From Actinopolymorpha singaporensis (GTDB lineage: Bacteria > Actinomycetota > Actinomycetes > Propionibacteriales > Actinopolymorphaceae), in contig NZ_LT629732.1 of assembly GCF_900104745.1 (NCBI RefSeq), positions 2,157,981-2,221,980 on the forward strand: a stretch of DNA of 64,000 bases. Direction: 5' to 3'. The position numbers and the translations under genes were made by a program. Within the stretch, counting starts at the first letter, position 1. The number at the start of each line of letters is the position of its first letter. The notes beneath the pieces are model-generated. The model saw nothing but the letters and a program-made list of their open reading frames with translations, did no database searches and was not told where the DNA came from. This document shows positions 4,037 through 42,208 of the stretch, piece by piece.

Positions 4037-5740
4037 ATGAGCGAGAACGACCGGCTGATCGCTGGCCGTTACCGCCTGGAGGAGCAGATCGGCAGCGGCG
4101 GCATGGGTGTCGTCTGGCGAGGCGTCGACGAGCGCCTGCACCGACCGGTCGCGGTCAAGCGTCTGCTGCTGCCTGCCTACCTCACCGGCACCCAGGCCGA
4201 GGAGGCGAAGCTTCGCGCGATGCGGGAGAGCCGCATCGCCGCCCGCATCCAGCACCCGCACGTCATCGCCACCTACGACGTGGTCGAGGACGACGGGCAT
4301 CCCTGCCTGGTGATGGAGTACCTCCCCTCCAGGAGCCTGTCGGAGGTGCTGGAGGAGCGTGGTTCGCTCCCGGCGGCCGAGGTGGCGAGCATCGGCCGGC
4401 AGGCGGCGAGCGCGCTGGCGTCCGCGCACGCGGCCGGCGTCGTGCACCGTGACATCAAGCCCGGCAACGTCCTGCTCGGTGACAACGGCGTGGTGAAGAT
4501 CGCCGACTTCGGAATCGCCCGCGCCGTCGGCGACGTGACGGTGACCGCGACCGGGCTCATCTCCGGCACTCCCGCCTACCTCGCGCCGGAGGTGGCGAAG
4601 GGCGAGGACGCCACGTTCGCCTCCGACGTCTTCTCGCTGGGTTCCACGCTGTACGCCGCGGTAGAGGGCGGGCCGCCGTTCGGTCGCAGCGAGAACCCCA
4701 TCGCCTTGCTGCACCAGGTCGCGTCGGCGCAGGTCGCCCCGCCGCGCCGGGCGCCGCGCCCACTGGCCGACGTGCTCCAGCGCGTCCTGCGAGCCGACCC
4801 ACGTCATCGCCCGCCGGCCGGTGCTGTGGCCCGCGAGCTGGCGGCGGTCAGCGCCCGGCTGTCCGGCACTCCGGCCCAGGGTGAGGACGCCGACACGACC
4901 AGGCGGTTCGACACGCCGGTGGCGGTACCCGGCGCTGACGCCACCGGTGCTTCCCGGCCCGCCCCGTCCGAGCCTGCTTCCGGGGCCGGCGCTTCCGGGG
5001 CCGTGGGAGCCGGGGCCGCCGCCGGTGCCGGGCTAAGCGACTTCTCGCCTCGTACGCCGTCGACGCCGTTCCCGCCGGAGGACTCCGAGCCTGCGGCGGC
5101 CGGTCCTGGTGGAGCCGGTGGTGACAGCCGGCGGCGCCGGTTCGGTGCGATCGTGGCGGCGGTGGTCGCCGTCGTGCTGATCGCCGGACTAGGTGTCGCG
5201 TTCGTGCTGGACCGCCGGGACAAGCCGGACGCCGGTCCGGTCACCGGCGCCACCACCGATCCGGCGACCCCGCGCAGCACGCCGACCCCGACGTCGAAGT
5301 CGCCGAGCCCGACTCCCACGACGAAGTCGCCGACCCCGACCCCGACCCCGACCACGAAGTCGCCGAGCCCGACGCCCAAGCCCACGCCGACGAAGACGCG
5401 GAAGTCGCCCAGCCCGAAGCCCACCAAGAAGGAGCCGCGTCAGTCGCAGGGCGAGGCGGTGTCCTCCTACTACTCCATGCTGCCGGAGAACACCTCCGGG
5501 GGCTGGTCCCAGCTGACCCCTCGGTACCAACGAAGGGCCGGTGGGTACGACGGCTACCAGCGCTTCTGGGCGCGGATGAGCGACGTGTCGGCCAGTGACG
5601 TCAGCACCAGCGGCAACGTCGTCCGGGCCCGGATCACCTACCACCTCAAGAGTGGTGGGACCGACCGGGAGCGGCGCAGCTTCACGATGGTGAAGCGGAA
5701 CGGCCGGTGGCTGATCGACGAGTCCTCGGTGATCGGCTGA
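4037..5740 (+). CDS. PknB-type transmembrane serine/threonine protein kinase
   Basis: A 567-residue membrane kinase. Residues 10-275 form the kinase domain: glycine loop GSGGMG (19-24), lysine K41 in AVKRLL, catalytic HRDIKPGN (137-144), DFG at 157-159, and the SGTPAYLAPE substrate loop (177-186). A Pro/Ala/Gly-rich linker leads to one membrane helix (about 370-391). Outside follow a TP/KSP-rich stalk (about 405-460, built from short repeats) and a roughly 100-residue globular end that looks NTF2/SnoaL-like rather than PASTA. The cytoplasmic kinase therefore probably responds to an extracellular signal other than muropeptides. GGGGAG lies 6 bases before the ATG. No cognate phosphatase gene is adjacent. 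Confidence 0.92.
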   Translation: MSENDRLIAGRYRLEEQIGSGGMGVVWRGVDERLHRPVAVKRLLLPAYLTGTQAEEAKLRAMRESRIAARIQHPHVIATYDVVEDDGHPCLVMEYLPSRSLSEVLEERGSLPAAEVASIGRQAASALASAHAAGVVHRDIKPGNVLLGDNGVVKIADFGIARAVGDVTVTATGLISGTPAYLAPEVAKGEDATFASDVFSLGSTLYAAVEGGPPFGRSENPIALLHQVASAQVAPPRRAPRPLADVLQRVLRADPRHRPPAGAVARELAAVSARLSGTPAQGEDADTTRRFDTPVAVPGADATGASRPAPSEPASGAGASGAVGAGAAAGAGLSDFSPRTPSTPFPPEDSEPAAAGPGGAGGDSRRRRFGAIVAAVVAVVLIAGLGVAFVLDRRDKPDAGPVTGATTDPATPRSTPTPTSKSPSPTPTTKSPTPTPTPTTKSPSPTPKPTPTKTRKSPSPKPTKKEPRQSQGEAVSSYYSMLPENTSGGWSQLTPRYQRRAGGYDGYQRFWARMSDVSASDVSTSGNVVRARITYHLKSGGTDRERRSFTMVKRNGRWLIDESSVIG

Positions 5741-5905
5741 CGCCTCGGCGCACCCGCAGCGCGCCCGACCACCGAACGTGCGGAAACGGCGCCTCGGGAG
5801 ACCCGCTCGGTCGGCATAGGTTTGGAGGTGGGATGCGGCGCCAAGGATCTCCGAACGCGGCTCCGCACCCCCCCCGGACCCGATCGCTGAACCAGGAGGA
5901 CCCAG

Positions 5906-6151
5906 ATGACGACGACGCCGGACTCCGATCCCCGCCAGGAGCTGCAGCAGGTCGAGGAAGACCTCGCGCGACTGCGAAGGGAACTCGACGAGGTACGCGC
6001 GCTCGGTGGCACCCGTTTCGACCCTCCCAACGACGCCGGGGACGTGGCGGCCGAACTCACCGCTGAGGAGGAGCAGCAGGCGATCATCGCAACCCTGGAG
6101 AAGCGCCGCGACGACCTGCGCCGCAAGCTCGGCCTGGCCGAGGGAAGCTGA
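5906..6151 (+). CDS. Small coiled-coil hypothetical protein
   Basis: An 81-residue acidic protein with no recognised family. Residues 10-32 (QELQQVEEDLARLRRELDEV) and 50-76 have heptad-like leucines and alternating charges, suggesting a helical hairpin or coiled coil. The AGGAGG six bases before the ATG is strong, and codon third positions are GC-rich like the neighbours, so it is probably expressed. It lies between the kinase gene and the MEDS-HATPase gene without overlap. Function unknown. Confidence 0.75.
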   Translation: MTTTPDSDPRQELQQVEEDLARLRRELDEVRALGGTRFDPPNDAGDVAAELTAEEEQQAIIATLEKRRDDLRRKLGLAEGS

Positions 6152-6251
6152 GGCCGAATCTCCTGTCCCATAACGGGATCTGTGCACGCGAACGGTGTCA
6201 AGCCGCACTTGGCGCCTTGGCGTGAGGTGATCGCGGTCGCATACTGGCCGG

Positions 6252-7238
6252 GTGGGCGGCACGCCGATAAAGCCGGCCGCGGTGGATCACGCGTCGCGGG
6301 TCGGACCCCTCGTGCACGAGGCATTCTTCTACCGCGACCGGGCAGCGCTGAGCGCGGCCCTGTTGCCGCGGTTCGCCGAGGCGTTCGCGTCCGGCCAACC
6401 GGTCGCGGTGGTCGCCCGCCGGTCCCGCACCGAGCTGCTCCAGGGCGCACTGGGCAGTGACGCGGGCCGCGTGCGCTGGCTCGACATGACCCGCGAGGGA
6501 CGCAACCCCACCCGGCTGATCTCCGGTGTGCTCGGCCGGTTCGCCGACGAGTACCCCGACCGCCGGGTGCTGATCGTGGGTGAGCCGATGTGGCCCGAAC
6601 GCCCCCGGGCCGACTACGCCGCGGTGGTCGCACACGAGGCGCTGATCAACGTCGCGTTCGCCGATCGCGAGCTGTCCGTGGTCTGTCCGTACGAGGTGAG
6701 CACGCTTCCCGCGCACGTGCTGCAGGACGCGGCGCGTACGCACCCCACCGTGGTGACCAGTGAGGACACCTGGGCGAGCCTTTCCTACCGCGATCCCGTC
6801 GACCTGGCGATGTCCTTCCTGAGCGACCTGCCCGAGCCGGAGAGTGTTCCGGAGCGGTTGACGTTCGGTGCGTACGAACTGGCACAGGTGCGCCAACTCG
6901 TGTACGCCCACGCCGTGCTGGCCGGCCTGGACAGTTCCCGCCGGGACGATCTCGTCCTCGCCGTCAACGAGGTCGCCACCAACACGCTGGTGCACGCCGG
7001 GGGTCAGGGCGTCCTGCGCGTCTGGCGGGAGACCGGCCGCCTCGTCTGTGAGGTGAGTGACCAGGGCCAGGTGAACGACCCGCTGATCGGCCGCCATCCC
7101 ACGCCGGTGGCGTCGCGGGCACCGCAGCAGCAGGGCGGTCGCGGGCTCCTGCTGGTCAACGAGATCTGCGACCTGGTGCAGATCGCCACGGCATCCGGCA
7201 CGACCGTACGCATGCACATGAACGTCGCCGACGACTGA
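6252..7238 (+). CDS. MEDS-domain sensor with C-terminal HATPase (anti-sigma/kinase-like)
   Basis: A 328-residue cytoplasmic regulator. Residues 15-165 match the MEDS (DcmR-type sensory) domain: VHEAFFYRDR at the start, then WLDMTREGRNPTRLI and CPYEVSTLPA. Residues 190-328 are a GHKL ATPase of the RsbW-like, single-domain type, with N-box NEVATNTLVHAGG, G1 box SDQGQ and a GGRGLLLVN loop. No phosphoacceptor histidine box is visible, so it more likely acts on an anti-sigma antagonist or partner kinase than as an ordinary histidine kinase. The start is a GTG at 6252 with a weak ribosome site. The target is unknown and no sigma factor gene is nearby. Confidence 0.85.
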   Translation: MGGTPIKPAAVDHASRVGPLVHEAFFYRDRAALSAALLPRFAEAFASGQPVAVVARRSRTELLQGALGSDAGRVRWLDMTREGRNPTRLISGVLGRFADEYPDRRVLIVGEPMWPERPRADYAAVVAHEALINVAFADRELSVVCPYEVSTLPAHVLQDAARTHPTVVTSEDTWASLSYRDPVDLAMSFLSDLPEPESVPERLTFGAYELAQVRQLVYAHAVLAGLDSSRRDDLVLAVNEVATNTLVHAGGQGVLRVWRETGRLVCEVSDQGQVNDPLIGRHPTPVASRAPQQQGGRGLLLVNEICDLVQIATASGTTVRMHMNVADD

Positions 7239-7291
7239 CCTCTCCGGCCGGCCGCACCACGCCCGGGGCGCGGGCGACCTGGCTCGCAGAC

Positions 7292-9487
7292 TCAGCCCTT
7301 TTTCGCCAGCAGGTCGGCGACCCGGAACGCCATCGCGAAGATCGTCAGGACCGGGTTGACACCGCCGTTGGTGACGTGCAGCGACCCGTCCGCGAGGCGG
7401 AGGTTGTCGTGCCCCCACACGCGGCCCTTCGGGTCGGTCACCGACGTCGCCGGGTCGGTGCCCATCCGGCAGGTGCCGGCCTGGTGCTGGCCGCCGCTCG
7501 GGCCACGGCCCACCCCGCCGCTCGGCACCGTGCGCGTCGCGCCGCTCGCCGCGAGCCATTCCGCCGCGCGCCGCTGCAGCATCGCCGCCGTGGGCCGGTC
7601 GAGGTCGAGCACGCCGCCCGACAGCCGGGCCACGGGCATCCCGAAGACGTCGCGTACCCGCGGATCGACCGTGACCCGTGAGCGTGGGTTCGGCGTCTCC
7701 TGCAGCGGTCCCATCACCATCGTGGTGCGTTGGTACAGCTCACGCATGCCGCGCTTGCTCGCGGCACCGGACCGCGGGATGACCCCGGCGCCGGTGAGCA
7801 GGTTGTACGTCGCGAGCGGCATCGGCACGAAGTCGTTGGCCAGCATCCCGCCGCCCACCAGGCCGTCGTTGTGGTGGCGGAAGTCGTGGGTGGCGATCGT
7901 CGGGCCGGGACCGGCGCTGTTCTGCACCACGTCGTCGAAGATGCCGAGCGCACCGGCGTACACGTGCCCCTGCAGGTTGCGGCCCACCTGGTCGTGCCGG
8001 TTGCCCAGGCCGGTCGGTTCCGTGGCGGACGCGCTGTTGAGCAGCAGCCGCGCGGTCTCGATGGCTCCGGCGGCCAGGATCACCTGGTCGGCGGTGAGCG
8101 TGCGACGGCGTACCTCACCGTCGGCCGGGCCGGAGCCACCGGCGAGGGTGGCGAGCGCGACGCCGGTCACCCGGCCGCTGTCGTCGGTGACCACGCGTTC
8201 GGCGAACGTGCCGGTGACGAGGTCGCACCGGCCGGTCGCCAGCGCGCGGGGGAGAACGGTGTTGTGGCTGCCGTTCTTGGCCTCCGCCGGGCAGCCGAAG
8301 CCGACGCACTGGCCGCAGCGTACGCAGGCAGGCCGCCCGCCGTAGGGAGTGGAGTTGATCAGCAGCGGAACGTGGCCGGTGGACCAGCCGAGGTCGCGTG
8401 CGCCGGCGGCGAGCCGCGCACCGGACAGGTTGCCCGGCAACGGCGGCATCGGCAGTCCTCGCCGGCGAGGACCGGCACCGGTGAACCCGGCCGGGTCGCC
8501 GGCCACTCCGAGCTCCCATTCGGCGCGGTCGTAGTAGGGCTCCAGATCGTCGTACGACAGCGGCCAGTCGGCCAGTGAGCTGCCGTCGGGCACGCCGTAC
8601 ACGGAGGCCATCCGAAAGTCCTCCGGCACGAACCGCCAGGCCTGCGCGCCGAAAACCCGGGTGCCGCCGCCGACCGTCATCGCGTTGTTGCTCCAGCGCC
8701 CGTCGGTCGGCCCGACGACCACCTCTTCGTCGCCGTCAGGTGCCCAGACCCGCGGGTGCCCGGACGCGACCGGCCCGGCACTCTGCGCGTATCCGAACAA
8801 CGCGCGGTGGCTGCGCAGGTGGTCTCCGCGCAGGTCCTCGGTGCGCAGGAAGTCGCCGCGCTCGACGGCGAGGACGCGGTAGCCGGCCTCGGCGAGCACG
8901 CAGGCCGCGGTGCCCCCGCCGGCGCCGGCGCCGACGACGATGGCGTCGTAGTGCGGTTCCAGGTCGCCGAACGGTGTCAACGGTAACTTGACGGTGAGTG
9001 CCTCAGGTGCCGGCCACTCGGCGTCCTGCGGCGCCGCGCGGTAGCCGACCATCCGCCAGGACACGCCGTCGCGGTTGCCGCCGTTGTCCGGATCGGCGTA
9101 GAAACCCTGCACAGCAAGGGACTCCATCAGTCGGAGGAACTCCGACCGGTCCACACCGCTCCAGTCGGCGGTGGTCTGCCCGGCGCGCAGGGCGTCGAGC
9201 ACCTCGTCCCGGCCGGTGTCGGCCAGCGCGGCGAAGCCCGTGGTGCCTCCGCCGTCGCCGGACCTCGATTCCGCCCGCGCATCCGCCTCGGCGTCGAGCA
9301 GATCCAGTCCGGCCGTTAGCAACTCGACCGCGTGGGGGAGTTCGGTCCGCAGGATCCGGGCCAGGAAGTCACCGACTCCGGCGTCCCATCCGGACGGGAA
9401 GTCGTCTGCCGGCACCATTCGGTCGACGGCCGCGCGCAGGGCCGGCCGGGCCAGCAGTCCGGTGAGGGTGGCGTCGTCGGCGGGCAT
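7292..9487 (-). CDS. GMC oxidoreductase fused to gluconate-2-dehydrogenase subunit-3-like domain
   Basis: A 731-residue flavoprotein. Residues 1-165 look like the small subunit 3 of membrane gluconate/sugar dehydrogenases (the segment ending YADPDNGGNRDGVSW is diagnostic). Residues 180-731 are a GMC oxidoreductase: FAD-binding YDAIVVGAGAGGGTAA, a cysteine cluster CVRCGQCVGFGC, and the C-terminal catalytic block HQAGTCRMGTD with NGGVNPVLTIFA. Such enzymes oxidise primary or secondary hydroxyls of sugars, polyols or sterols. In many relatives the two parts are separate proteins. No Tat signal or cytochrome c partner is seen here. GGAGG lies before the ATG at 9487. The next gene upstream on the same strand is a PhyH dioxygenase. 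Confidence 0.88.
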   Translation of the reverse strand: MPADDATLTGLLARPALRAAVDRMVPADDFPSGWDAGVGDFLARILRTELPHAVELLTAGLDLLDAEADARAESRSGDGGGTTGFAALADTGRDEVLDALRAGQTTADWSGVDRSEFLRLMESLAVQGFYADPDNGGNRDGVSWRMVGYRAAPQDAEWPAPEALTVKLPLTPFGDLEPHYDAIVVGAGAGGGTAACVLAEAGYRVLAVERGDFLRTEDLRGDHLRSHRALFGYAQSAGPVASGHPRVWAPDGDEEVVVGPTDGRWSNNAMTVGGGTRVFGAQAWRFVPEDFRMASVYGVPDGSSLADWPLSYDDLEPYYDRAEWELGVAGDPAGFTGAGPRRRGLPMPPLPGNLSGARLAAGARDLGWSTGHVPLLINSTPYGGRPACVRCGQCVGFGCPAEAKNGSHNTVLPRALATGRCDLVTGTFAERVVTDDSGRVTGVALATLAGGSGPADGEVRRRTLTADQVILAAGAIETARLLLNSASATEPTGLGNRHDQVGRNLQGHVYAGALGIFDDVVQNSAGPGPTIATHDFRHHNDGLVGGGMLANDFVPMPLATYNLLTGAGVIPRSGAASKRGMRELYQRTTMVMGPLQETPNPRSRVTVDPRVRDVFGMPVARLSGGVLDLDRPTAAMLQRRAAEWLAASGATRTVPSGGVGRGPSGGQHQAGTCRMGTDPATSVTDPKGRVWGHDNLRLADGSLHVTNGGVNPVLTIFAMAFRVADLLAKKG

Positions 9488-9706
9488 GGTCGACCTCCGC
9501 GGCAGGCTCGGTGTCCCGGGGCCCCTTCCTCGCGACCCTTCTGGAACGTGTCGAGGGGCGGAACCCGAGGCCCGCCCCGCGAACGACCCTATTCCCTCCG
9601 GAACTGGCGATGGAGCCCGGCGGCCGCCTCGGCCGGCGTGACGGGCGACCGGTTTCGGCGAGGGGCGGAACACGGTGGCCGGGCCGAGCTGACCCGAGTG
9701 GCGTAC

Positions 9707-10489
9707 TCAGTCGACGTCGATCCGGCCGACGACCTCTCCGCCCGCGAGGAACTGCTCGAACTCACCCCACGGCTTGGAGCCGTCCTTGGTCATGATGACC
9801 TCCTTGGAGTACTGCGCGAGGTAGACCCGGCGCAGCCTGTCGGTGAGGTTCGGGCCGCTGCGGTGCATCACCACGCTGGAGAACACCGCGATCGACCCTG
9901 CGGGCACCGTCACCGGCATGCCGGGGTCGTCGCCGAAGTAGCAGACGAGGTCGTTCACCCGGGGGTCCGGGATGTGCTTGACGTAGGAGCGGATGCCGGA
10001 ACGCGAGTACGGCCGCAGGTAGACCGAGCCGTTCTCCTCCGTCACGTCGTCGAGCGCGATCCAGCAGGTGAGGTAGGGCGCGTGGTCCTCGTGCACGTAG
10101 CCGGAGTCCTGGTGCCAGGCGAACGCCGTGTCCGGGTCGCCGGCCTTGATGACGTACTGCTCCCAGAAGAGGTACGCCTCCTCGCCCAGCGTCGCCCGGC
10201 AGATCTCCCGCATCAGCTCGCTGAACAGGAACTGCCGAAGCTCCGGCCGGTCGCGGTAGATCATGTGGCTGAAGTAGCGCTTGCCGCGGGCGTTGATGCC
10301 GATCCGGTCGGTGCCCGCCTCCTCCATCGCGGCGTCCAGCTTGTCCATGGAGTACTGCGCACCGCCGCGAAGCAGTTCCAGTTGCTCGTCGCTCAGTGCG
10401 CGTTCGAGGATGAAGTAGCCGTCGTTCTCGTACTGCTCCCGCATCTGCGGGGTGACCAGGGCGGTCCTGGACTCCTCGGTCGAGGTCAT
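9707..10489 (-). CDS. Phytanoyl-CoA dioxygenase (PhyH) family protein
   Basis: A 260-residue Fe(II)/2-oxoglutarate-dependent dioxygenase candidate. The iron-binding facial triad is visible as HQD in AFAWHQDSGYVHED, with the distal histidine in VVMHRSGPNLT and the 2-oxoglutarate arginine probably just downstream (TDRLRRVYLAQYS). The N-terminal YENDGYFILERALSDEQ is the usual start of the fold. The ATG at 10489 has TGGAGG upstream. It is divergent from an AraC-type regulator, which probably controls it, and precedes the GMC oxidoreductase gene on the same strand after a 219-bp gap. The substrate is unknown; bacterial members hydroxylate many small molecules besides phytanoyl-CoA. Confidence 0.87.
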   Translation of the reverse strand: MTSTEESRTALVTPQMREQYENDGYFILERALSDEQLELLRGGAQYSMDKLDAAMEEAGTDRIGINARGKRYFSHMIYRDRPELRQFLFSELMREICRATLGEEAYLFWEQYVIKAGDPDTAFAWHQDSGYVHEDHAPYLTCWIALDDVTEENGSVYLRPYSRSGIRSYVKHIPDPRVNDLVCYFGDDPGMPVTVPAGSIAVFSSVVMHRSGPNLTDRLRRVYLAQYSKEVIMTKDGSKPWGEFEQFLAGGEVVGRIDVD

Positions 10490-10594
10490 GGGTCGCTGCC
10501 TCCAGCGGGTCGGTGCGGTCTGTGCGCCGTCGGTGTACGCCCGACGCTAGGCCGCGGCGCCGCCGGAGTGGAATGGTCACGTTGGCCGGGACAT

Positions 10595-10645
10595 GTACGT
10601 TCTGGCGCCCGGGTGGCCCGCCGGTCCGGACGCCCGGGTACGTTC
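10595..10645. promoter_or_regulatory. Direct repeat in the PhyH/AraC divergent region
   Basis: The 162-bp divergent gap carries two copies of GTACGTTC (10595-10602 and 10638-10645). Each is flanked by GC-rich CGCCCGGGT copies (10606 and 10631 regions). Direct repeats are the usual form of AraC-family sites, so this is a candidate site for the regulator encoded at 10652, but the 43-bp spacing is long. Confidence 0.3.
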
Positions 10646-10651
10646 GCGGGC

Positions 10652-11455
10652 ATGGACTCCGGCACCAGGATCGCCGTGTCCGCCGCACCGGTGACCAGGC
10701 TTGGCCAGCTGGTGCTGGCCGGCGAGGTGGTCGACGACGAGCCGATGATGCCGTCGCCGCTGCGGGTGATGGAGGCGTACGTCCTGTCGGTGGTGCTCGC
10801 GGGGCACGGCCGCTACCGGCACGCCGACGGCCGGGAGGAGCCGGTCACCCCGGGCGCGCACACGCTGGTCCCGCCCGGCCGGCCGCACTGGTACGGCACC
10901 CTCGGCGGGCGGACCTGGACGGAGGTGTTCGTCGTCTTCACCGGTCCGTTGTTCGACGCCCTGGCCCGGGCGGGTGTGCTGGCTGAGGCCGGCCCGCGGT
11001 ATCCGCGCCCGGCCCCGTCGGCCGCCGCGCTGCGGACCATCCTGGCCTCCACGCCGCGGTCGGTGCAGGCGGCCGAGCACCAGTTGGTGGCGTTCGCCGA
11101 CTGGCTGCTGGACGTGACCGGGCCGGAGGAGTCGGAGGGCCCGAGTCCTGCCGTGGCCGCAGCCGTCGACCGGCTCGCCGACGACCTGACCGGCCGCCTC
11201 GACATGCGGTCGGTCGCCTGCGAGGTCGGGCTGCCGTACGACACGTTCCGGCGGAGGTTCGCCGCCGAGGTCGGCCAGTCACCGCTGGCGTTCCGCAACG
11301 CTCGGCGGCTGCAGACCGCCGCGACGCTCTTGCGTGTGACAGACATGACCACCAGGGAGATCGCCCGGACCCTCGGCTACACCGACGAGTTCCATCTGTC
11401 ACGGAGGTTCCGCGCCTACTTCGGCCTGCCGCCGAGCGACTACCGCCGCTCGTGA
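10652..11455 (+). CDS. AraC family transcriptional regulator
   Basis: A 267-residue regulator. Residues 20-110 form a cupin-like sensor (VTPGAHTLVPPGRPHWYGTL) and residues 165-267 hold the double helix-turn-helix: MRSVACEVGLPYDTFRRRF, then TTREIARTLGYTDEFHLSRR and FGLPPSDYRR. The start is the ATG at 10652; the frame is open much further upstream, but that stretch overlaps the PhyH and GMC genes and is not coding-like. The divergent arrangement suggests it controls the PhyH gene, possibly in response to the substrate or product of that enzyme. Confidence 0.9.
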   Translation: MDSGTRIAVSAAPVTRLGQLVLAGEVVDDEPMMPSPLRVMEAYVLSVVLAGHGRYRHADGREEPVTPGAHTLVPPGRPHWYGTLGGRTWTEVFVVFTGPLFDALARAGVLAEAGPRYPRPAPSAAALRTILASTPRSVQAAEHQLVAFADWLLDVTGPEESEGPSPAVAAAVDRLADDLTGRLDMRSVACEVGLPYDTFRRRFAAEVGQSPLAFRNARRLQTAATLLRVTDMTTREIARTLGYTDEFHLSRRFRAYFGLPPSDYRRS

Positions 11456-11474
11456 GCAGCCCGGCCGTGCCTTT

Positions 11475-11549
11475 GCGGGCCCTTGTCTGGCGGGCCCTTG
11501 TCTGGCGGGCCCTTGTCTGGCGGGCCCTTGTCTGGCGGGCCTTGCCCGG
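11475..11549. repeat. 15-bp tandem repeat between convergent genes
   Basis: Four perfect copies of GCGGGCCCTTGTCTG (11475-11534) and a degenerate fifth (to 11549) fill the gap between the AraC stop (11455) and the TetR stop (11552). Each unit contains the palindrome GGGCCC, so alternative hairpins can form, and it may act as a terminator. It is not inside a believable gene. Confidence 0.9.
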
Positions 11550-11551
11550 GG

Positions 11552-12205
11552 TCAGGCGTTGTCGGCGAGGGCGAGAGCGGCGAGTCGTCTGGCCTGGGCG
11601 ACGGCGCGGGTGGGTACGCCGGTCCCGTAGCTGACGCTCGCGCCCTCGTGGAGGACGAGCAGGCCGGCCGCGACGGTGCCGGGCCGGCGAATGCCCGCGG
11701 CCCTCACCAGGTCCGTGAGGTAACCGAGCAGCCAGCGCTTCTGCTCCAGGATGACCCCGCGCCCGGGATGGTCGGCGTTCTCCGGGAGCTCGGCGAGGGC
11801 GTTGACGAAGGCGCAGCCGCGGGTGTTCTCCCGCCGGGACCACTGCTCGAGCGCGTCGAAGGTGGCGAGGACGCGCTCGACGCCGACCTTCCTGTCGGCG
11901 GCGCCGTCCCCGCCCCTGTCCCCGTCTCTGTCCTTGTCCGTGCTCGCCCGCCTGCCCGTGCTCGTTCGCGCGGCCGCGTGGTGGTCGACGTAGGACGTCA
12001 GCCATTCTCGCCAGCGCTCGTCGCGCGCCCGGAGATAACAGGCGACGAGGACGTCCTTGGAGCCGAAGCAGTCGTACAGCGTCTTCTTGGTCACCCCGGC
12101 GGCACGCGCCACCGCATCCACGCCCACGGCATGGATGCCCTGGTCGTAGAAGAGAGCGGAGGCCGCGTCCAGGATCCGGCGGCCGGCCGGGGTGAGCTCT
12201 CGCAT
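11552..12205 (-). CDS. TetR family transcriptional regulator
   Basis: A 217-residue repressor. The N-terminal helix-turn-helix is clear (ILDAASALFYDQGIHAVGVD, then ARAAGVTKKTLYDCFGSKD at residues 34-52). The ligand domain ends with an MftR/YxaF-like stretch (EQWSRRENTRGCAFVNALAE). Between helices about residues 82-108 is an unusual Asp/Arg/Gly-rich insert (DKDRDGDRGGDG), coded by simple repeats, that most relatives would lack. The start is the ATG at 12203-12205, with a -10 element 8 bases upstream and no ribosome site, so translation is probably leaderless. An operator-like palindrome lies further upstream, suggesting autoregulation. Confidence 0.9.
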   Translation of the reverse strand: MRELTPAGRRILDAASALFYDQGIHAVGVDAVARAAGVTKKTLYDCFGSKDVLVACYLRARDERWREWLTSYVDHHAAARTSTGRRASTDKDRDGDRGGDGAADRKVGVERVLATFDALEQWSRRENTRGCAFVNALAELPENADHPGRGVILEQKRWLLGYLTDLVRAAGIRRPGTVAAGLLVLHEGASVSYGTGVPTRAVAQARRLAALALADNA

Positions 12206-12213
12206 GCGACCCG

Positions 12214-12228
12214 ACTATACCGACCGGT
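12214..12228 (-). promoter_or_regulatory. -10 element (TATAGT) and overlapping dyad of the TetR gene
   Basis: On the minus strand TATAGT (12214-12219) ends 8 bases before the ATG. The adjoining ACCGACCGGT (12219-12228, arms ACCG/CGGT) is a small dyad that overlaps the promoter. Both the promoter and the site are inferred from sequence only. Confidence 0.45.
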
Positions 12229-12260
12229 GGGGTGACGAGGGGGCGGCCCGCGCACGGCAC

Positions 12261-12282
12261 AGGTATACCCGGCGGTATACCT
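12261..12282. promoter_or_regulatory. Probable TetR operator palindrome
   Basis: AGGTATAC (12261-12268) and GTATACCT (12275-12282) form perfect 8-bp arms around a 6-bp spacer. This is AT-rich sequence in a GC-rich region, 56 bp upstream of the TetR start. The size and symmetry are typical of TetR operators. It also lies 256 bp upstream of the divergent gene at 12539. Confidence 0.6.
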
Positions 12283-12538
12283 GCAAGCGCGCCTCTTCCA
12301 CCGCAACGGCCCGGCGCCGATGATCGGCCGCCCGCGCTCCAGCGCCACCGGGACCGCCTGTTCCCTGTCCTCGATGGCGCCCAGGGCAACGGCTGACGCC
12401 TGCGAGGTCCGGCCGCCCAGGTCGGCCGCGCAGTGGTCGCCGGATCCGCGACCGGTGCGTTCGGGGCTTTACGCCCGGGCCGGGTCCACCTACAACGGAG
12501 AGAACGCAGAGGTACGCCTCCCGTGGTAGGGGGACCCG

Positions 12539-13357
12539 ATGAGCGCACCACCGGAGGGCCCGGTTTCGGAAGATCCGAGCTCACCCGACCCGACCCAGCG
12601 GATGCGGGCGCGGCTCGGGGCCGTGCTGGCGCTGGCGTCTGCTCAGCTCCCGAGGTCGGCCGCGCCGGACGTTCGTACGCCCACTGGCCCTACGCCGACC
12701 GACCGGACGCCGGTCGGCGGGCCGCCCACCGACCGGATGCGGGAAAGCCCGGTGCGGGAGACTCCGCCCACCACGCCGGCCCCCGGAGCTCCGGCCGCGC
12801 CCGCACCGGCTGCACCCGCACCGGCTGCACCCGCACCGGCTGCACCCGCACCGGCTGCACCCGCACCGGGCGCGTCTGCTCCGGATCGGGCACCTCGTGC
12901 GAACAGTCCCACCACCCCGCTGATCACCGCCGCCGTCGGCGCCTCCGTCCGGGTCCGGGCGAGTGAACCGAACGACCTCGGTGTGGCCGAGCGCACCCGG
13001 CTGGCGGGGTTGTTCAAGCGGGTGGGTGCCTGGGCGCTCGGACTGAGCGCGGCGGGGATGTTCTTCGCAGCCCTCGCGACGCTCAAGTGGGTCGGCGGGG
13101 AGAACGTCGACGTCGGTGCCGTCGGGTGGGCCGCGGTCGGGCTGGCGCTGGTCTCGCTGACCTCGCTCGTCCTGGCCTACTTCACCGTGATGGGCTTCCG
13201 GCAGATCGAGTACGAGGCAGATCTCGGCGGTGGACAGCACGAGGTCACCCAGCAGGGGAGCAGCCAGCAGGGGAGCAGCCAGAGCCGGCCGAGCCAGGGC
13301 GGTCAGGACCGGCGTACCGGGGACGGCCGTCGGGAGGACCGGCAGCCGACCTCCTGA
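12539..13357 (+). CDS. Ala/Pro-repeat membrane protein of unknown function
   Basis: A 272-residue protein with three parts. The first is a disordered Pro/Thr-rich N-terminus containing an APAP-type repeat (about residues 80-112, from four perfect 15-bp units). The second is a core with two membrane helices (about 162-182 and 196-222, the second ending in VLAYFTVMGF). The third is a Gln/Ser/Gly-rich hydrophilic tail with GSSQQ repeats. There is no known domain. AGGGGG lies 5-10 bases before the ATG. It is convergent with the glycosyltransferase gene with 11 bp between stops. The helices suggest an inner-membrane protein with both tails on the same side. Confidence 0.75.
   Translation: MSAPPEGPVSEDPSSPDPTQRMRARLGAVLALASAQLPRSAAPDVRTPTGPTPTDRTPVGGPPTDRMRESPVRETPPTTPAPGAPAAPAPAAPAPAAPAPAAPAPAAPAPGASAPDRAPRANSPTTPLITAAVGASVRVRASEPNDLGVAERTRLAGLFKRVGAWALGLSAAGMFFAALATLKWVGGENVDVGAVGWAAVGLALVSLTSLVLAYFTVMGFRQIEYEADLGGGQHEVTQQGSSQQGSSQSRPSQGGQDRRTGDGRREDRQPTS
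12800..12870 (+). repeat. 15-bp in-frame tandem repeat
   Basis: Four perfect copies of CCCGCACCGGCTGCA plus an 11-base partial copy, encoding an Ala/Pro pentapeptide repeat inside the membrane protein gene. The unit is a multiple of three, so copy-number change would only alter linker length. Confidence 0.9.
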
Positions 13358-21434: not shown

Positions 21435-21578
21435 GAATCCGAACGGGACGAAGTTCGCCGGCGTACGCGCCCTTGTCGGGGGGCGAGGCCGCAGGTGCTC
21501 GGCGTTTCGATCGGAGGATGTGATCACTTCCCCGTGCATCACACATTTTCCGATTACCTGCGAAGGAGGAGGGTCGGG

Positions 21579-21878
21579 ATGACCGAGAATTCCACGCTGG
21601 ACGTGGGCACCGGCGTAAGGCTCGTATCCGAGGAACGGGGCGAGTACGGTGCCGGGCACATTCCGGCACCGCGCGTGGAGCCCGAGGGCGCGAGGGGCCG
21701 GGGCCGGCCGTCGCTGGGTGGGCAGGGTCGCTCGCCACAGGTGACGTTCCGTGCTCCGCCTGCCCTTCGGGCGATGGCCGAGGAGCAGGCTGCGCGGGAC
21801 GGCAAGACCGTGTCCCAGCTCGCTCGCGAGGCGTTCGAGATGTACCTCGCCAGCAAGGGCGGCGCCGGGCTCGGCTGA
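21579..21878 (+). CDS. Small ribbon-helix-helix-like DNA-binding protein
   Basis: A 99-residue protein. The first 50 residues are disordered (Gly/Arg-rich). The last 45 look like a CopG/Arc ribbon-helix-helix: QVTFRAPPALRAMAEEQAAR, then GKTVSQLAREAFEMYL. Such proteins usually autoregulate or act as antitoxins; no toxin gene is next to it. AAGGAGGAGG gives one of the strongest ribosome sites in the window, 7-9 bases before the ATG. The AT-richer 100 bp upstream (around 21520-21560) probably holds its promoter. Confidence 0.75.
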   Translation: MTENSTLDVGTGVRLVSEERGEYGAGHIPAPRVEPEGARGRGRPSLGGQGRSPQVTFRAPPALRAMAEEQAARDGKTVSQLAREAFEMYLASKGGAGLG

Positions 21879-22000: not shown

Positions 22001-23305
22001 TCAGAAGCCGGAGAAGAGGTACGGCGCGGCGGGCGGGAACATCGTGCGCAGTTCCTGGGCAGTCTCGGCGTCGACGGTGCCGTAGCCCTGCAGCGCCAGC
22101 TCTGCCGGGTCGATGACGCCGTAGACCAGGGCGGCCAACCCGTGCGAGGTCAGCCGCGCCGTGGCTCCGGTGCCCGCGCCGTTGCCGCCGGACGCGCTGC
22201 CGGAAGTGACCTCGAGCGTCCCGCCGCGTCCGTCCAGCGTCCAGGTGCCGGCCACGAACGGGTCGTCCACCACCTCGATCGTCGCCCGGGCGGTGCCCGT
22301 CGTGATCCCGGCCAGCCCGGGCACCGACAGGACCCGGCCCATCGGTGAGCTGTGGTTGGGGCCGCTGACCTTGGTCTCGTCGTCGTAGGCGAGGTCGACG
22401 TACCACAGGTCGGGGCGCTCGTCCGGCGGCAGCTCGAACGTGAACGAGCTGTACTGGTCGTGATGCCGGGCCAGCCACTGCAGCAGGAGCGTCCGCCCGA
22501 TCGGGCCGCGGGTGAGCAGCTGCCGGCCCTGGAGCTCCTCGCCGAAACCGTTGGTGCGGTACAGCAGCGCGCCGACGATCTCACCCTCGTGGCGGGCGAG
22601 GGCGATCCAGTGCTTGTTCTCCTTCGCCACTCCCACGGTGCCGGCCCGGTTGAAGACCGAGAACCCGTGGCGCTCGCCGAGCAGCGTCTCCAGCAGCGCG
22701 TAGTAGTCGTCGAACACCTCGCCGATGCGGTGGACGCTCACCTCGCCGGGCACCTCGACCCGCAGCATCCGCTCCAGGCCGCCGGCCTCCAGCCGGATGT
22801 TGCGCGGCTTGGGGAACCCGACGTAGCCGAAGCGTTCGTAGAACGACTGCCGGAACGGGTAGAGCGTGCTCAGCACGTGCCCGCTGTCGCGCATCTGCTC
22901 GTGCATCCGGGTGAGCAGAGTGCGGACGTGACCGCGCCGGCGGGCCTTCGGGTGGGTCGCCACCCCGCTGATCCCGACCATCGGAAACACCGAGCCGCGG
23001 ACGTTGTGCCGCATGGAGATCCCGCCCACGACGGCCTCCGCCTCGCCGCCGCCGAACGCGACCAGGTTGACCCGGGAGTCGTCCTCACCCTCGCCGGAGG
23101 CGAGCTCGGTCCGCCAGCGGTCGACCGTCTCGTCGGAGACAGGTGAGCCCTGGAAGGCGTACGCCCACAGCGGGTAGGCGGTGGTGAGGAGCTCCTCCCC
23201 GCTCACCGCACGGATCGTGGGGGCTGCGTCGGCTGGGACGTCCTGGGCCGCGACAGCGGGCGAGGCGGCAGTCGGGGTGGTGGCCGGGTCCGGGATGGTG
23301 TTCAC
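22001..23305 (-). CDS. Eis-like GNAT N-acetyltransferase
   Basis: A 434-residue enzyme of the Eis/enhanced intracellular survival family: two GNAT folds followed by an SCP2-like domain and a free C-terminal aromatic carboxylate (ending FSGF) that serves catalysis in this family. The acetyl-CoA site is GVATHPKARRRGHVRTLL (about residues 113-130), followed by STLYPFRQSFYERFGY, another Eis hallmark. Such enzymes acetylate amines, including aminoglycosides, polyamines or proteins. The start is a GTG at 23305 with TAGGGT 8 bases upstream and no ribosome site, so it is probably leaderless. The first 20 codons and the promoter lie in the first copy of a 213-bp tandem repeat. Confidence 0.9.
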   Translation of the reverse strand: MNTIPDPATTPTAASPAVAAQDVPADAAPTIRAVSGEELLTTAYPLWAYAFQGSPVSDETVDRWRTELASGEGEDDSRVNLVAFGGGEAEAVVGGISMRHNVRGSVFPMVGISGVATHPKARRRGHVRTLLTRMHEQMRDSGHVLSTLYPFRQSFYERFGYVGFPKPRNIRLEAGGLERMLRVEVPGEVSVHRIGEVFDDYYALLETLLGERHGFSVFNRAGTVGVAKENKHWIALARHEGEIVGALLYRTNGFGEELQGRQLLTRGPIGRTLLLQWLARHHDQYSSFTFELPPDERPDLWYVDLAYDDETKVSGPNHSSPMGRVLSVPGLAGITTGTARATIEVVDDPFVAGTWTLDGRGGTLEVTSGSASGGNGAGTGATARLTSHGLAALVYGVIDPAELALQGYGTVDAETAQELRTMFPPAAPYLFSGF

Positions 23306-23395
23306 AGTCGGCGACCCTAACGGCCGCCACCCCCGATGGCCCAGAGGGGCGACCGCTCGCAGGGGCCGGGGACGTTCGCCAGAGCGAGGCGCTGC

Positions 23396-23518
23396 TCACC
23401 AGGAGGTGTCGCTCACCGAGAACGCCTGCTCACCGAGTGGTGTGGGCGCCGCCGTTCGGGCCGCGACAGCGGGCGAGGCGGCAGTCGGGGTGGTGGCCGG
23501 GTCCGGGATGGTGTTCAC
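23396..23518 (-). CDS. 40-residue peptide from duplicated acetyltransferase 5' end (copy 2)
   Basis: In the second repeat copy the same GTG start and 20 codons run into the end of the first copy and stop after 20 new residues (ending SVSDTSW). Its promoter element is identical to that of the intact gene. It may be translated only by accident, or act as a leader peptide. The third copy repeats it at 23609-23731. Functional status is unknown. Confidence 0.3.
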   Translation of the reverse strand: MNTIPDPATTPTAASPAVAARTAAPTPLGEQAFSVSDTSW

Positions 23519-23608
23519 AGTCGGCGACCCTAACGGCCGCCACCCCCGATGGCCCAGAGGGGAGACCGCTCGCAGGGGCCGGGGACGTTCGCCAGAGCGA
23601 GGCGCTGC

Positions 23609-23731
23609 TCACCAGGAGGTGTCGCTCACCGAGAACGCCTGCTCACCGAGTGGTGTGGGCGCCGCCGTTCGGGCCGCGACAGCGGGCGAGGCGGCAGTCG
23701 GGGTGGTGGCCGGGTCCGGGATGGTGTTCAC
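23609..23731 (-). CDS. 40-residue peptide from duplicated acetyltransferase 5' end (copy 3)
   Basis: Same reading frame as the peptide at 23396-23518, produced by the outermost repeat copy. It shares the TAGGGT-N8-GTG start region with the real gene. Probably a by-product of the duplication. Confidence 0.3.
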   Translation of the reverse strand: MNTIPDPATTPTAASPAVAARTAAPTPLGEQAFSVSDTSW

Positions 23732-23881
23732 AGTCGGCGACCCTAACGGCCGCCACCCCCGATGGCCCAGAGGGGAGACCGCTCGCAGGGGCCGGGGACG
23801 TTCGCCAGAGCGAGGCGCTGCTCACCAGGAGGTGTCGCTCACCGAGAACGCCTGCTCACCGAGTGGTGTGGGCGCCGCCGT

Positions 23882-24164
23882 TCACGGCAGCACCTGGCCG
23901 GTGATGTGCCGCGCGCCGTGATCCCCCGCGTGCCGAGCTCGGCGGCGGCGCCGAGATTCCAGTTGGCCGAAGGCCGCCTTGGCCGCGCCGTACGCCCCGG
24001 CGCCCTTCTCCGCCGCGATCGACGTTGGCGGTGCAGTTCGTGCGCCACTGCTCGGAGAGAGACTCCAGGCTGTCCGGCTCGTCGAGGTCGAAGTCCGGCG
24101 GCCTCGAACCGCAGGGCGACGGCGCGGTCGATGCCGGTGCCCCCGCCGGTGACCACCGGGACAT
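23882..24164 (-). pseudogene. Remnant of a short-chain dehydrogenase/reductase gene
   Basis: Pieces of a classical SDR occur in order but in three different frames. The cofactor loop VVTGGGTGIDRAVALRFEA (with ID where intact enzymes have IG) is followed, in another frame, by SLSEQWRTNCTANV, the usual NLTGV-type strand. In a third frame come GAYGAAKAAFGQL (active-site YxxxK region) and GITARHITGQVLP near the C-terminal GG. The total is only about 280 bp against roughly 750 for a whole gene, so large deletions and frameshifts have occurred. The stop (23882-23884) coincides with the end of the 213-bp repeat array, suggesting that rearrangement and decay are linked. Confidence 0.7.
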
Positions 24165-24334
24165 GGTGGCTCCTTCGGACGGGAGCGGGTGCGCGTCCCA
24201 ACGTACCGAGGGGTTTGGCCGAGTGTGGCCCAGCGAACCGGCAGCGGGTGGCACCTGCCCGTACTCGTGCCAGGATCATCGCCAGACGCCAAGCACGCCA
24301 GTACCGGCGACCACCCACGAGGGGGCGGCATCCC

Positions 24335-25126
24335 ATGACGACGAGCGGCGTACTCGAATGGCGCAGCGACGTCGACAGCACAGGTCGGCTCGAACCCGAA
24401 CTCGTCGAGCGCTACCGTCGCGACGGCTTCGTCCGGGTGCGAGGCGTACTCGATCGTGCGGAGGTCGAGCATTTCCGTGACGCGGCCGAGCGCTTCCTGG
24501 AGGCGCACCGGTCGGAGAGTCTCGCGAAGGACCGGGTGTTCACCCAGCTGGTTAACGTCTGGCGCCAGGACCCGACGATGAGCGAGCTCACCCTGCACCC
24601 GCGACTGGCGGGGGTGGCCGAACAGCTCGCCGGAATTCCGTTGCGCATCTGGCACGACCACATGCTGGTGAAGGAGCCGCACAACGAGGCGCCCACGGAG
24701 TTCCACCAGGACCGGCCGTACTGGCCGCACACCGGTGACCGCCATTCGCTGTCGGCCTGGATCGCGCTGGTCGACGTGCCACCCGAGCGCGGATGCATGA
24801 CCTTCCTGCCCGGCACGCAGGAGCTGACCGGGTTCCGCCCGCAGAACCTCCGCGACGAGGAGGACCTCTTCGACCTCGACCCGTCGCTTCGCTGGGTGCC
24901 GCGGGTGACCGTTCCCCTGCGGGCCGGCGACTGCACCTTCCACTGCAGCTACACCGGCCACATGGCGACCCCCAACCGCACCGACCAGGCGCGGCTGGCG
25001 CACGTGGCCATCTACATGGACGCCGAGACGAAGTTCTCCGGTGCACCGCACCCGGTGACCGAGCCGCTCGATATGACCCCTGGAGAACCGCTGGCCGGGG
25101 AGATGTTCCCCCGGCCCGGCCGCTGA
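24335..25126 (+). CDS. Phytanoyl-CoA dioxygenase (PhyH) family protein
   Basis: A 263-residue Fe(II)/2-oxoglutarate dioxygenase candidate, only distantly like the one at 9707. The fold start VERYRRDGFVRVRGVLDRAE, the iron motif FHQDRPYW (HxD), a distal histidine in CSYTGHMATPN and the following RTDQARLAHVAIYM all fit. The ATG at 24335 follows GGGGGCGG. The frame is open far upstream (to 23762) because of the repeat array, but that part is not coding-like. It is a single gene; the SDR remnant on the opposite strand directly upstream may once have been a partner. Substrate unknown. Confidence 0.87.
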   Translation: MTTSGVLEWRSDVDSTGRLEPELVERYRRDGFVRVRGVLDRAEVEHFRDAAERFLEAHRSESLAKDRVFTQLVNVWRQDPTMSELTLHPRLAGVAEQLAGIPLRIWHDHMLVKEPHNEAPTEFHQDRPYWPHTGDRHSLSAWIALVDVPPERGCMTFLPGTQELTGFRPQNLRDEEDLFDLDPSLRWVPRVTVPLRAGDCTFHCSYTGHMATPNRTDQARLAHVAIYMDAETKFSGAPHPVTEPLDMTPGEPLAGEMFPRPGR

Positions 25127-41227: not shown

Positions 41228-42208
41228 ATGCCACGTCAGGGGGATCACCGCGTACGTCATCTCGCCAGGTGGGTGGCGACTCCGGTGCTGGCGCTGAGCG
41301 CCGCACTGGTGTTGTTCGCTCTCACCCAGGGCGCTCCGGCGCTGCTGGCAGGTGCTGCCATCACCACGCTCGTGTCCGGAGTCGTCGCGGTGGCCGTCTA
41401 CGACGTCGAACTACTACGTGCCCGGCGCACGCACGGCGCCGACCGGGCCGCGCAGGCGCGTTCCTACGCCGCGATGTACGCCGCACACGTCCGGGTGATG
41501 GCGCAGGGCTTCACGCTCGCCAACAACCGCCAGCGGCTCGAGGTCCCCGTCAAGTCCGCAGGGGACGAGGCCGCCGGGACGCCTGAGGCCGAGTCGGCTG
41601 CGAAGGTCGGGCAGGCCACCCCGGTGGCGCGCGCGGTGACGCAGGTACGCACCCAGCGGCGAGCTGCCGGCAGCGGAGGCCAGGTTGAGTGGGACACCCT
41701 CGCCGGCCCCGGCGAGGACGTCCGGTCCGAGGCGCCTGCCGAGAAGGTCGAGCCGGCGAAGAAGACCGAGCCCGCCGAGAAGACCGAGCCCGCCGAGAAG
41801 GCCGAGCCTGCCGAGAAGGTCGAGCCTGCCGAGAAGGTCGAGCCTGCCGAGAAGGTCGAGCCCGCCGAGAAGGTCGAGCCCGCCGAGAAGGTCGAGCCCG
41901 CCGAGAAGGTCGAGCCCGCAGACGGGGCCAAGGCGCAGGAGGGGAAGTCGGCGGCGCCGGAGCTGTGGAAGAGCCTCCCCGAGGCCCCGACGGTCGTCGA
42001 TCTCAAGGCGTGGGAGGTACGCGCCCGGATCGCCGAGGAAGAACGCGCCGCCCGGCAGAAGACGCAGGGCAAGTCCGAGGACGCCAAGCAGGACGCCAAC
42101 CGCAACCAGCCCGCCGACGGCACCCCGGCCAAGAACGCCGCGCCGGCGAAGGCCGTCGAGGCCGACGGCCACGAGGAGTCCCCGGCCCAGGAGCGCAAGG
42201 GCGCCTGA
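41228..42208 (+). CDS. Membrane protein with EPAEKV repeats
   Basis: A 326-residue protein. Two membrane helices form a hairpin near the N-terminus (about 12-33 and 38-58). Residues 70-150 are a soluble part, residues 175-235 a repeat of EPAEKV/EPAEKT hexapeptides, and residues 236-326 a charged Lys/Glu/Ala-rich tail. The position right after DUF3180 matches an alanine/proline-rich transmembrane protein in mycobacteria (Rv3604c, from memory), so it may be a diverged counterpart. The repeat probably forms an extended charged helix on the cytoplasmic side. Function unknown. Confidence 0.75.
   Translation: MPRQGDHRVRHLARWVATPVLALSAALVLFALTQGAPALLAGAAITTLVSGVVAVAVYDVELLRARRTHGADRAAQARSYAAMYAAHVRVMAQGFTLANNRQRLEVPVKSAGDEAAGTPEAESAAKVGQATPVARAVTQVRTQRRAAGSGGQVEWDTLAGPGEDVRSEAPAEKVEPAKKTEPAEKTEPAEKAEPAEKVEPAEKVEPAEKVEPAEKVEPAEKVEPAEKVEPADGAKAQEGKSAAPELWKSLPEAPTVVDLKAWEVRARIAEEERAARQKTQGKSEDAKQDANRNQPADGTPAKNAAPAKAVEADGHEESPAQERKGA
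41752..41922 (+). repeat. 18-bp in-frame tandem repeat
   Basis: About ten units of GAGCCCGCCGAGAAGGTC with few changes encode the EPAEKV repeats. Units near the centre are identical or differ only at one silent site (GCC/GCT context). Replication slippage would change the copy number without a frameshift. Confidence 0.85.

What the first reader, a model, noticed from the sequence alone, without database searches (positions are those of the whole stretch)
23245..23883. Near-identical triple 213-bp repeat multiplies the promoter and first 20 codons of an Eis-like acetyltransferase
Three head-to-tail copies differ at one base that I can see. Each contains the TAGGGT-N8-GTG leaderless start and the N-terminal codons of the gene. 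The unit is 71 codons, so frames persist. The array ends precisely at the stop of a decayed SDR gene. A tandem promoter array in front of an acetyltransferase that can inactivate drugs is a plausible route to higher or variable expression; copy number may change by recombination.
Basis: partly seen in the sequence, partly recalled or inferred. Interest (0 to 1): 0.72.

Follow-up and report, generated by a model that had tools for sequence, protein, structure and literature searches.

The report
Tripled promoter before an acetyltransferase gene
A soil actinobacterium appears to carry a recent head-to-tail triplication of a 213-base piece that holds the end of a dead gene plus the start signal and first codons of an acetyltransferase gene; it looks like an ordinary spontaneous tandem duplication, and the extra start signals probably give mainly short dead-end messages.

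Summary
The repeat is in the sequence as described: three 213-bp head-to-tail copies at 23245-23883, differing at one base, in a single-contig 6.40 Mb genome of the genus Actinopolymorpha. Three relatives match the unit at one place each, so it is a lineage-specific tandem triplication. Each unit holds the last 28 bases of a decayed SDR gene (stop codon included), the intergenic region, a leaderless promoter (TAGGGT-N8-GTG) and 61 bases (20 codons plus one base) of a GNAT acetyltransferase. The array edge thus lies 28 bases inside the SDR, not at its stop. The junction shows no microhomology. The promoter reading is well supported: TAnnnT lies 6 or 8 bases before GTG in 8 of 8 family genomes, against 147 of 67,858 GTGs in sampled own DNA. 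'Higher expression' is not: messages from the distal promoters would read a 40-codon ORF that stops 90 or 303 bases before the real start. Drug inactivation is untested; the protein is far below NCBI's Eis cut-offs. A lead: GTGAGC boxes at 17-bp period lie upstream of the promoter here, in A. rutila and in G005 (3 of 8 genomes), rising from 3 to 9 in the array.

The parts
23245..23457 (-). Unit copy 1 (gene-proximal): SDR tail, intergenic region, promoter P1, 61 bases of the GNAT gene; has the base seen in A. rutila (C at 23350)
23458..23670 (-). Unit copy 2, A at 23563
23671..23883 (-). Unit copy 3 (distal), identical to copy 2, A at 23776
23314..23319 (-). -10 element TAGGGT of P1, 8 bases before the GTG at 23305
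   Evidence: TAnnnT at 6 or 8 bases in 8 of 8 family genomes
23527..23532 (-). -10 element of P2 (GTG at 23518)
23740..23745 (-). -10 element of P3 (GTG at 23731)
23396..23518 (-). 40-codon dead-end ORF that a leaderless P2 transcript would read first; ends 90 bases before the GNAT start
23609..23731 (-). The same 40-codon ORF from P3; ends 303 bases before the GNAT start
23394..23433 (-). Three GTGAGC boxes at 17-bp period, copy 1
23607..23646 (-). Three GTGAGC boxes, copy 2
23820..23859 (-). Three GTGAGC boxes, copy 3; the first overlaps the SDR stop codon
   Evidence: overlap read from the sequence
22001..23305 (-). Intact GNAT acetyltransferase gene, 434 aa, Acetyltransf_9 plus SCP2_2 domains (Eis-type architecture)
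23856..24164 (-). Remnant of an SDR gene, about 309 bases against about 726 in the intact G004 copy, matched only by short pieces in different frames; its last 28 bases lie inside the array
   Evidence: the 5' end at 24164 was placed by eye
24335..25126 (+). PhyH-family dioxygenase gene, neighbour in 7 of 7 genomes compared
21495..21878 (+). Small conserved protein gene just downstream of GNAT, weakly like ribbon-helix-helix DNA-binding proteins (below Pfam cut-offs); possible regulator, no link to the boxes shown

Best explanation
A recent, lineage-specific tandem triplication in an Actinopolymorpha chromosome. Shown: a 213-bp segment running from 28 bases inside the SDR remnant to just past codon 20 of the GNAT gene is present three times head to tail in the assembly, and three relatives match it at one place each. 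Inferred: the first duplication arose by illegitimate joining, since the junction has no shared bases; one base changed in the distal copy; that copy was then duplicated by recombination between the 213-bp repeats. Inferred function: P1, next to the intact gene, makes the working leaderless message as before. P2 and P3 may also fire, but mainly give messages that start with a 40-codon dead-end ORF, so GNAT output changes little. The array is probably near-neutral and prone to copy-number change.
For: Three copies with one difference. The unit matches one place each in A. rutila (G003), G004 and G001, in a search of 8 family genomes that scored 40 of 50-151 first-look candidates in each. Against A. 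rutila 34 of 203 aligned unit columns differ, against G004 33 of 196, against G001 35 of 192, while copies differ at 0 or 1 of 213: the copies are far younger than the species splits or have been homogenised. The proximal copy shares the A. rutila base at 23350; G004 and G001 are gapped there and do not help. No shared base at the junction on either side. TAnnnT 6 or 8 bases before GTG in 8 of 8 genomes, against 147 of 67,858 GTGs in 1.664 Mb of own DNA (0.2%). The 40-codon ORF and the distances to the GNAT start are computed. No Rfam match and no terminator-like site; the unit RNA does not fold better than shuffles (z 0.29). Published two-step model (non-homologous duplication, then RecA-dependent amplification): PMC11721125, passages seen.
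Against: No expression data. In E. coli, tandem core-tac promoters raise transcription stepwise up to five copies (PMC3293061, abstract), so output could rise. The AGGG inside TAGGGT could act as a weak ribosome site on the longer messages (own reading, not computed), and reinitiation after the 40-codon ORF cannot be excluded. GTGAGC boxes in the unit hint at regulation, and a small gene for a weakly DNA-binding-like protein lies just downstream of GNAT. The order of events rests on one outgroup base.
Confidence: 0.66

Rival explanations
1. Adaptive promoter amplification: extra promoter copies recruit more RNA polymerase and raise GNAT expression, and copy number is tuned by recombination.
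For: The three promoters are identical in the -10 element and GTG. Engineered tandem promoters raise transcription in E. coli (PMC3293061, abstract).
Against: Distal transcripts would begin with a leaderless 40-codon ORF and a gap of 90 or 303 bases before the GNAT GTG. No sister strain of the same species could be compared. Nothing here shows selection.
Confidence: 0.2
2. Operator amplification: GTGAGC boxes at 17-bp period upstream of this promoter bind a regulator, and the array raises them from 3 to 9, changing control rather than basal strength.
For: In 57 genomes the triple-box pattern occurs in 4: the window array, G005 at the same locus, and one site each in G016 and G033 where the 17 bases are simply repeated. 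A. rutila has a pair at the same locus. The cores are identical while the spacers differ. 0 of 3000 random 300-bp pieces of own DNA had 3 or fewer mismatches to the triple. Candidate regulators exist: an AraC-type gene directly upstream in G005, and a conserved small protein with weak ribbon-helix-helix likeness just downstream of GNAT in own, G001, G003 and G004.
Against: 5 of 8 family genomes have no exact box within 300 bases of the start, including G004, G001 and G002, whose GNAT proteins are closer to the window's than that of G005. Box pairs alone are not rare: 2-4 per genome in the 7 other family genomes and 3 outside the array in the own genome. Controls with reversed patterns gave 1 hit for the triple (G004), 1 for the GG-pair (own) and 0-2 per genome for the pair. 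The G005 boxes are a perfect 17-bp tandem repeat that could be independent. The small protein is below Pfam cut-offs (15.7 against 27 bits; 14.4 against 27.2) and is also kept in G001 and G004, which lack the boxes.
Confidence: 0.11
3. Assembly artefact: the true copy number is one or two.
For: The same contig has odd ends: a 9.46-kb palindrome at its start and a direct overlap of its two ends. Copies 2 and 3 are identical.
Against: Copy 1 differs at one base and there agrees with A. rutila, so at least two copies are likely real. The odd ends look like untrimmed long-read ends (inference), and long reads would span 639 bases. Reads were not available.
Confidence: 0.06
4. The array is a coding repeat: one of the two plus-strand frames open through it (the 246-aa ORF 23181-23921, or the other) is a real gene with 71-residue repeats.
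For: Two plus-strand frames are open across the array and the unit is a multiple of 3.
Against: The 246-aa ORF has G+C of 0.73, 0.70 and 0.78 at codon positions 1-3, against 0.70, 0.51 and 0.94 for GNAT. In the single-copy region of G004 and G001 all three frames of that strand hold stops; in A. rutila two of three are open.
Confidence: 0.02

Closest known systems
Short-junction tandem duplication followed by RecA-dependent amplification in bacteria (reviewed in PMC11721125; passages seen)
   Same: Head-to-tail copies, non-homologous first junction, later expansion through the homology created
   Different: The unit is far smaller (213 bp against kilobases in the cases whose passages I saw) and holds no whole gene, only a gene end, a promoter and a gene start
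Engineered tandem promoter clusters (MCPtacs, PMC3293061; abstract seen)
   Same: Repeated promoters in the same direction in front of one gene
   Different: Here each promoter carries its own leaderless start and 20 codons, so distal messages enter a dead-end ORF first
Eis-type GNAT acetyltransferases (PDB 3ryo, 5ebv, 4jd6; PMC5799202, abstract seen)
   Same: Acetyltransf_9 plus SCP2_2 architecture; phmmer matches to Eis chains over the GNAT core
   Different: 24.8-35.1 bits to the chains named Eis or Eis2, over 60-106 residues of 434, and far under NCBI's Eis equivalog cut-offs; substrate unknown

Membership tests
Tandem duplication/amplification | Head-to-tail near-identical copies, single copy in relatives | tested here: met
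   three copies here, one matching place in each of G001, G003 and G004; no match in the 4 other family genomes
Tandem duplication/amplification | Non-homologous (short) first junction | tested here: met
   zero shared bases at the junction
Leaderless actinobacterial gene | TAnnnT about 10-12 bases upstream of the start codon (PMC3160421, passages seen) | tested here: met
   8 of 8 genomes, 6 or 8 bases between the element and GTG (first T 12 or 14 bases before the start); where several starts were possible (G001, G002, G003, G007) I took the one with the motif; background 147 of 67,858 GTGs
Leaderless actinobacterial gene | RNA 5' end at the start codon | not testable with these tools
   no RNA data
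Eis (NCBIfam equivalog) | Score above the curated cut-off (576 or 701 bits) | tested here: not met
   42 and 37.4 bits
Eis-like GNAT superfamily | Acetyltransf_9 and SCP2_2 domains | tested here: met
   90.6 bits (cut-off 25) and 25.6 bits (cut-off 23.2)
Drug-modifying acetyltransferase | Acetylates aminoglycosides or other drugs | not testable with these tools
   needs an enzyme assay
Phase-variable promoter VNTR | Copy number differs between strains and changes expression | not tested
   the genome collection holds one genome per species; no sister strain of this species was compared

The most novel reading that the evidence does not exclude
The unit is a modular regulatory cassette: a bank of GTGAGC boxes at 17-bp period plus a leaderless promoter, whose amplification from 3 to 9 boxes and 1 to 3 promoters retunes an acetyltransferase through a copy-number switch, with the distal leaderless 40-codon ORFs acting as decoys that couple promoter firing to translation.
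Probability: 0.07. Interest if true: 0.55.

Novelty: new member of a known kind. Interest (0 to 1): 0.3.

Why it matters
It is a neat natural example of a very small tandem amplification that multiplies a leaderless promoter together with its start codon. If distal leaderless starts are dead ends, it shows why promoter duplication need not raise expression in actinobacteria, where about a fifth of genes are leaderless (PMC3160421, passages seen). If expression does rise, it is a natural copy-number dial.

Tried and rejected
Rfam search of 22900-24400 found nothing up to E=1. RNA folding of the unit was no better than shuffles (119 of 200 shuffles fold at least as well). The consensus scan of 23000-24400 found no sigma-70-type promoter and no terminator; the -10-only leaderless signal is outside that scan. 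The plus-strand ORFs through the array were rejected as genes on codon-position G+C. A regulon for the paired box GGTGAGC-N10-GGTGAGC was rejected: in the own genome all 6 matches lie in the array, and among the 5 other genus genomes only G003 (2, one at this locus) and G004 (2, elsewhere) have any. Paper searches for naturally duplicated promoters listed no precedent that I recognised for a unit holding promoter plus first codons; I saw listings, plus the outline and abstract of PMC11111574, the abstract of PMC3293061 and passages of PMC11721125, so absence from print is not claimed. A search for papers on the likely species gave 2 papers, of which I saw only the listing. The genome-contig scan gave only two named relatives. 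The alignment of the SDR remnant is poor at its 3' end; the SDR end was placed.

Full report
WHAT IS THERE. The window lies at 2157981-2221980 of a single-contig genome of 6,403,569 bases. The genus is Actinopolymorpha: the two named loci found are A. rutila and A. pittospori, whose contigs match G003 and G002 of the same genus by length and position. I suspect A. singaporensis from recall of its genome size; no call shows the species. TRF finds 23245-23883 as 3.0 copies of 213 bp at 99%. Copies 2 and 3 are identical; copy 1 differs at 23350. The repeat does not extend by a single base on either side. A search of the whole genome with the unit returned only these three places (which scored 40 of 117 first-look candidates).

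ANATOMY. On the minus (gene) strand each unit holds, in order: 28 bases that are the 3' end of an SDR gene, including its stop; a bank of three GTGAGC boxes, the first overlapping that stop; a stretch ending in TAGGGT; 8 bases; and 61 bases of the GNAT gene from its GTG. The intact relatives of the SDR are in G004 and G002, immediately upstream of the same gene. In the window the SDR is a remnant of about 309 bases, matched by tblastn only as pieces of 25 and 21 residues in different frames (for the DNA).

NEIGHBOURHOOD AND RELATIVES. A GNAT relative of 57-93% identity was found in all 7 other family genomes. PhyH was found beside it in 7 of 7 genomes compared (own included; G007 was not compared), and COX1 on the other side in 4 of 7 (the fetched stretches may not reach it in the rest). 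The SDR is present in G004 and G002, decayed in the window, and not found in the fetched stretches of G001, G003, G005 and G006. A small protein gene (21495-21878) lies just downstream of GNAT in own, G001, G003 and G004 at 96% identity or more; G002, G005 and G006 have a relative within about 4 to 11 kb by position, and G007 none. It is weakly like NikA and ribbon-helix-helix antitoxins, below Pfam's cut-offs (15.7 against 27 and 14.4 against 27.2 bits). A DNA search with the unit matched one place each in G001, G003 and G004, three in the own genome, and none in G002, G005, G006 and G007. The triplication is therefore particular to this lineage as far as these 8 genomes show.

AGE AND ORIGIN. 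Across the unit the window and A. rutila differ at 34 of 203 aligned columns, the window and G004 at 33 of 196, the window and G001 at 35 of 192; the copies differ at 0 or 1 of 213. The copies are young or homogenised. At 23350 the proximal copy agrees with A. rutila, so the state in copies 2 and 3 is most simply derived; G004 and G001 are gapped there, so this rests on one relative. The junction between copies shares no base with either edge. The simplest history is a non-homologous first duplication, one base change in the distal copy, and a second duplication of that copy by recombination. This matches the two-step model reviewed in PMC11721125 (passages seen).

HOW UNUSUAL. In 81 pieces totalling 1.664 Mb (the window, chosen because of the array, plus 80 sampled stretches of 20 kb) TRF at minimum score 100 lists 12 distinct arrays with period 60 or more. 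The window array has the highest identity (99%; next 93%), and the longest exact direct repeat within 5 kb (320 bp; next 144 bp). Of the other 11 arrays, 10 have a period divisible by three, as coding repeats would.

PROMOTER. TAnnnT lies 8 bases (6 genomes) or 6 bases (G006, G007) before GTG in 8 of 8 family genomes. Where several starts were possible (G001, G002, G003, G007) I took the one with the motif. Only 147 of 67,858 GTGs in the 1.664 Mb, both strands, have it at 6-8 bases. TAnnnT close to the start marks leaderless genes, about 20% of genes in Actinobacteria (PMC3160421, passages seen). RNA ends were not available.

WHAT THE EXTRA COPIES WOULD DO. A leaderless message from 23518 or 23731 reads 20 GNAT codons, runs into the SDR tail out of its frame, and stops after 40 codons, 90 or 303 bases before the GNAT GTG. 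The unit being 71 codons does not help, because the GNAT frame has a stop in each unit. I therefore expect little gain in GNAT protein. Two points stand against this: tandem tac promoters raise transcription stepwise up to five copies in E. coli (PMC3293061, abstract), and the AGGG within TAGGGT might serve as a weak ribosome site on longer messages (own reading).

THE PROTEIN. PF13527 (90.6 bits) and PF13530 (25.6 bits) give an Eis-type architecture. Of 11 PDB sequences matched, the best is a GNAT-family protein (3n7z, 39.3 bits); chains named Eis (enhanced intracellular survival protein) score 31.6-35.1 bits (E 7.7e-8 to 8.6e-7) over the GNAT core, and Eis2 24.8 bits. NCBI's Eis equivalogs are missed by a wide margin (42 against 576; 37.4 against 701). 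Eis homologues are widespread in Gram-positive bacteria and acetylate arylalkylamines too (PMC5799202, abstract). Drug inactivation is one possibility among several and is untested.

A LEAD BEYOND THE FINDING. The boxes GTGAGC-N11-GTGAGC-N11-GTGAGC occur in 4 of 57 genomes searched: three times in the window array, once in G005 at the same locus, and once each in G016 and G033, where the 17 bases are simply repeated; the reversed control pattern gave one hit, in G004. A. rutila has a pair at the same locus. Five of 8 family genomes have no exact box within 300 bases of the start. Pairs alone are commoner: 2-4 in each of the 7 other family genomes, 9 in the own genome of which 6 lie in the array, with 0-2 for the reversed control. 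In random 300-bp pieces of own DNA 0 of 3000 came within three mismatches of the triple. The G005 copies are a perfect 17-bp tandem repeat with different spacers, beside an AraC-type regulator gene. The small gene downstream of GNAT could encode a DNA-binding protein, but it is also kept in G001 and G004, which lack the boxes. This may be an operator bank, or two independent short tandem duplications; I put the operator reading at about 0.11.

VERDICT. Well supported in the assembly, recent and neat, but of a known kind. The coordinates and promoter reading hold; the edge claim is wrong; the expression and drug claims remain open, and the anatomy argues against a simple dose effect.

Noticed in passing
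L046:1-12754 and L125:11926-20000 (own genome, contig ends): The first 9463 bases of the contig match their own reverse complement at 98.3%, and 4672-12754 repeats directly near the contig's end at 99.7%. This looks like an untrimmed long-read end with a missed adapter (inference).
   Followed up: partly
G005:C95:61970-62009 (L134): A 17-bp tandem repeat with GTGAGC in each copy sits just upstream of the GNAT leaderless promoter, beside an AraC-type regulator gene.
   Followed up: partly
21495-21878: Small protein gene convergent with GNAT, 96% or more identical in G001, G003 and G004, weakly like ribbon-helix-helix proteins and below Pfam cut-offs.
   Followed up: partly
L095:1660-1880: A 92-bp, 2.4-copy repeat (93% matches), the only sampled array of period 60 or more whose period is not a multiple of three.
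   Followed up: no
41734-41919: An 18-bp, 10.3-copy repeat (92% matches), period a multiple of three.
   Followed up: no
L098:14648-16799: A 276-bp array of 7.6 copies, open in one frame on each strand, probably a repeat protein gene.
   Followed up: no
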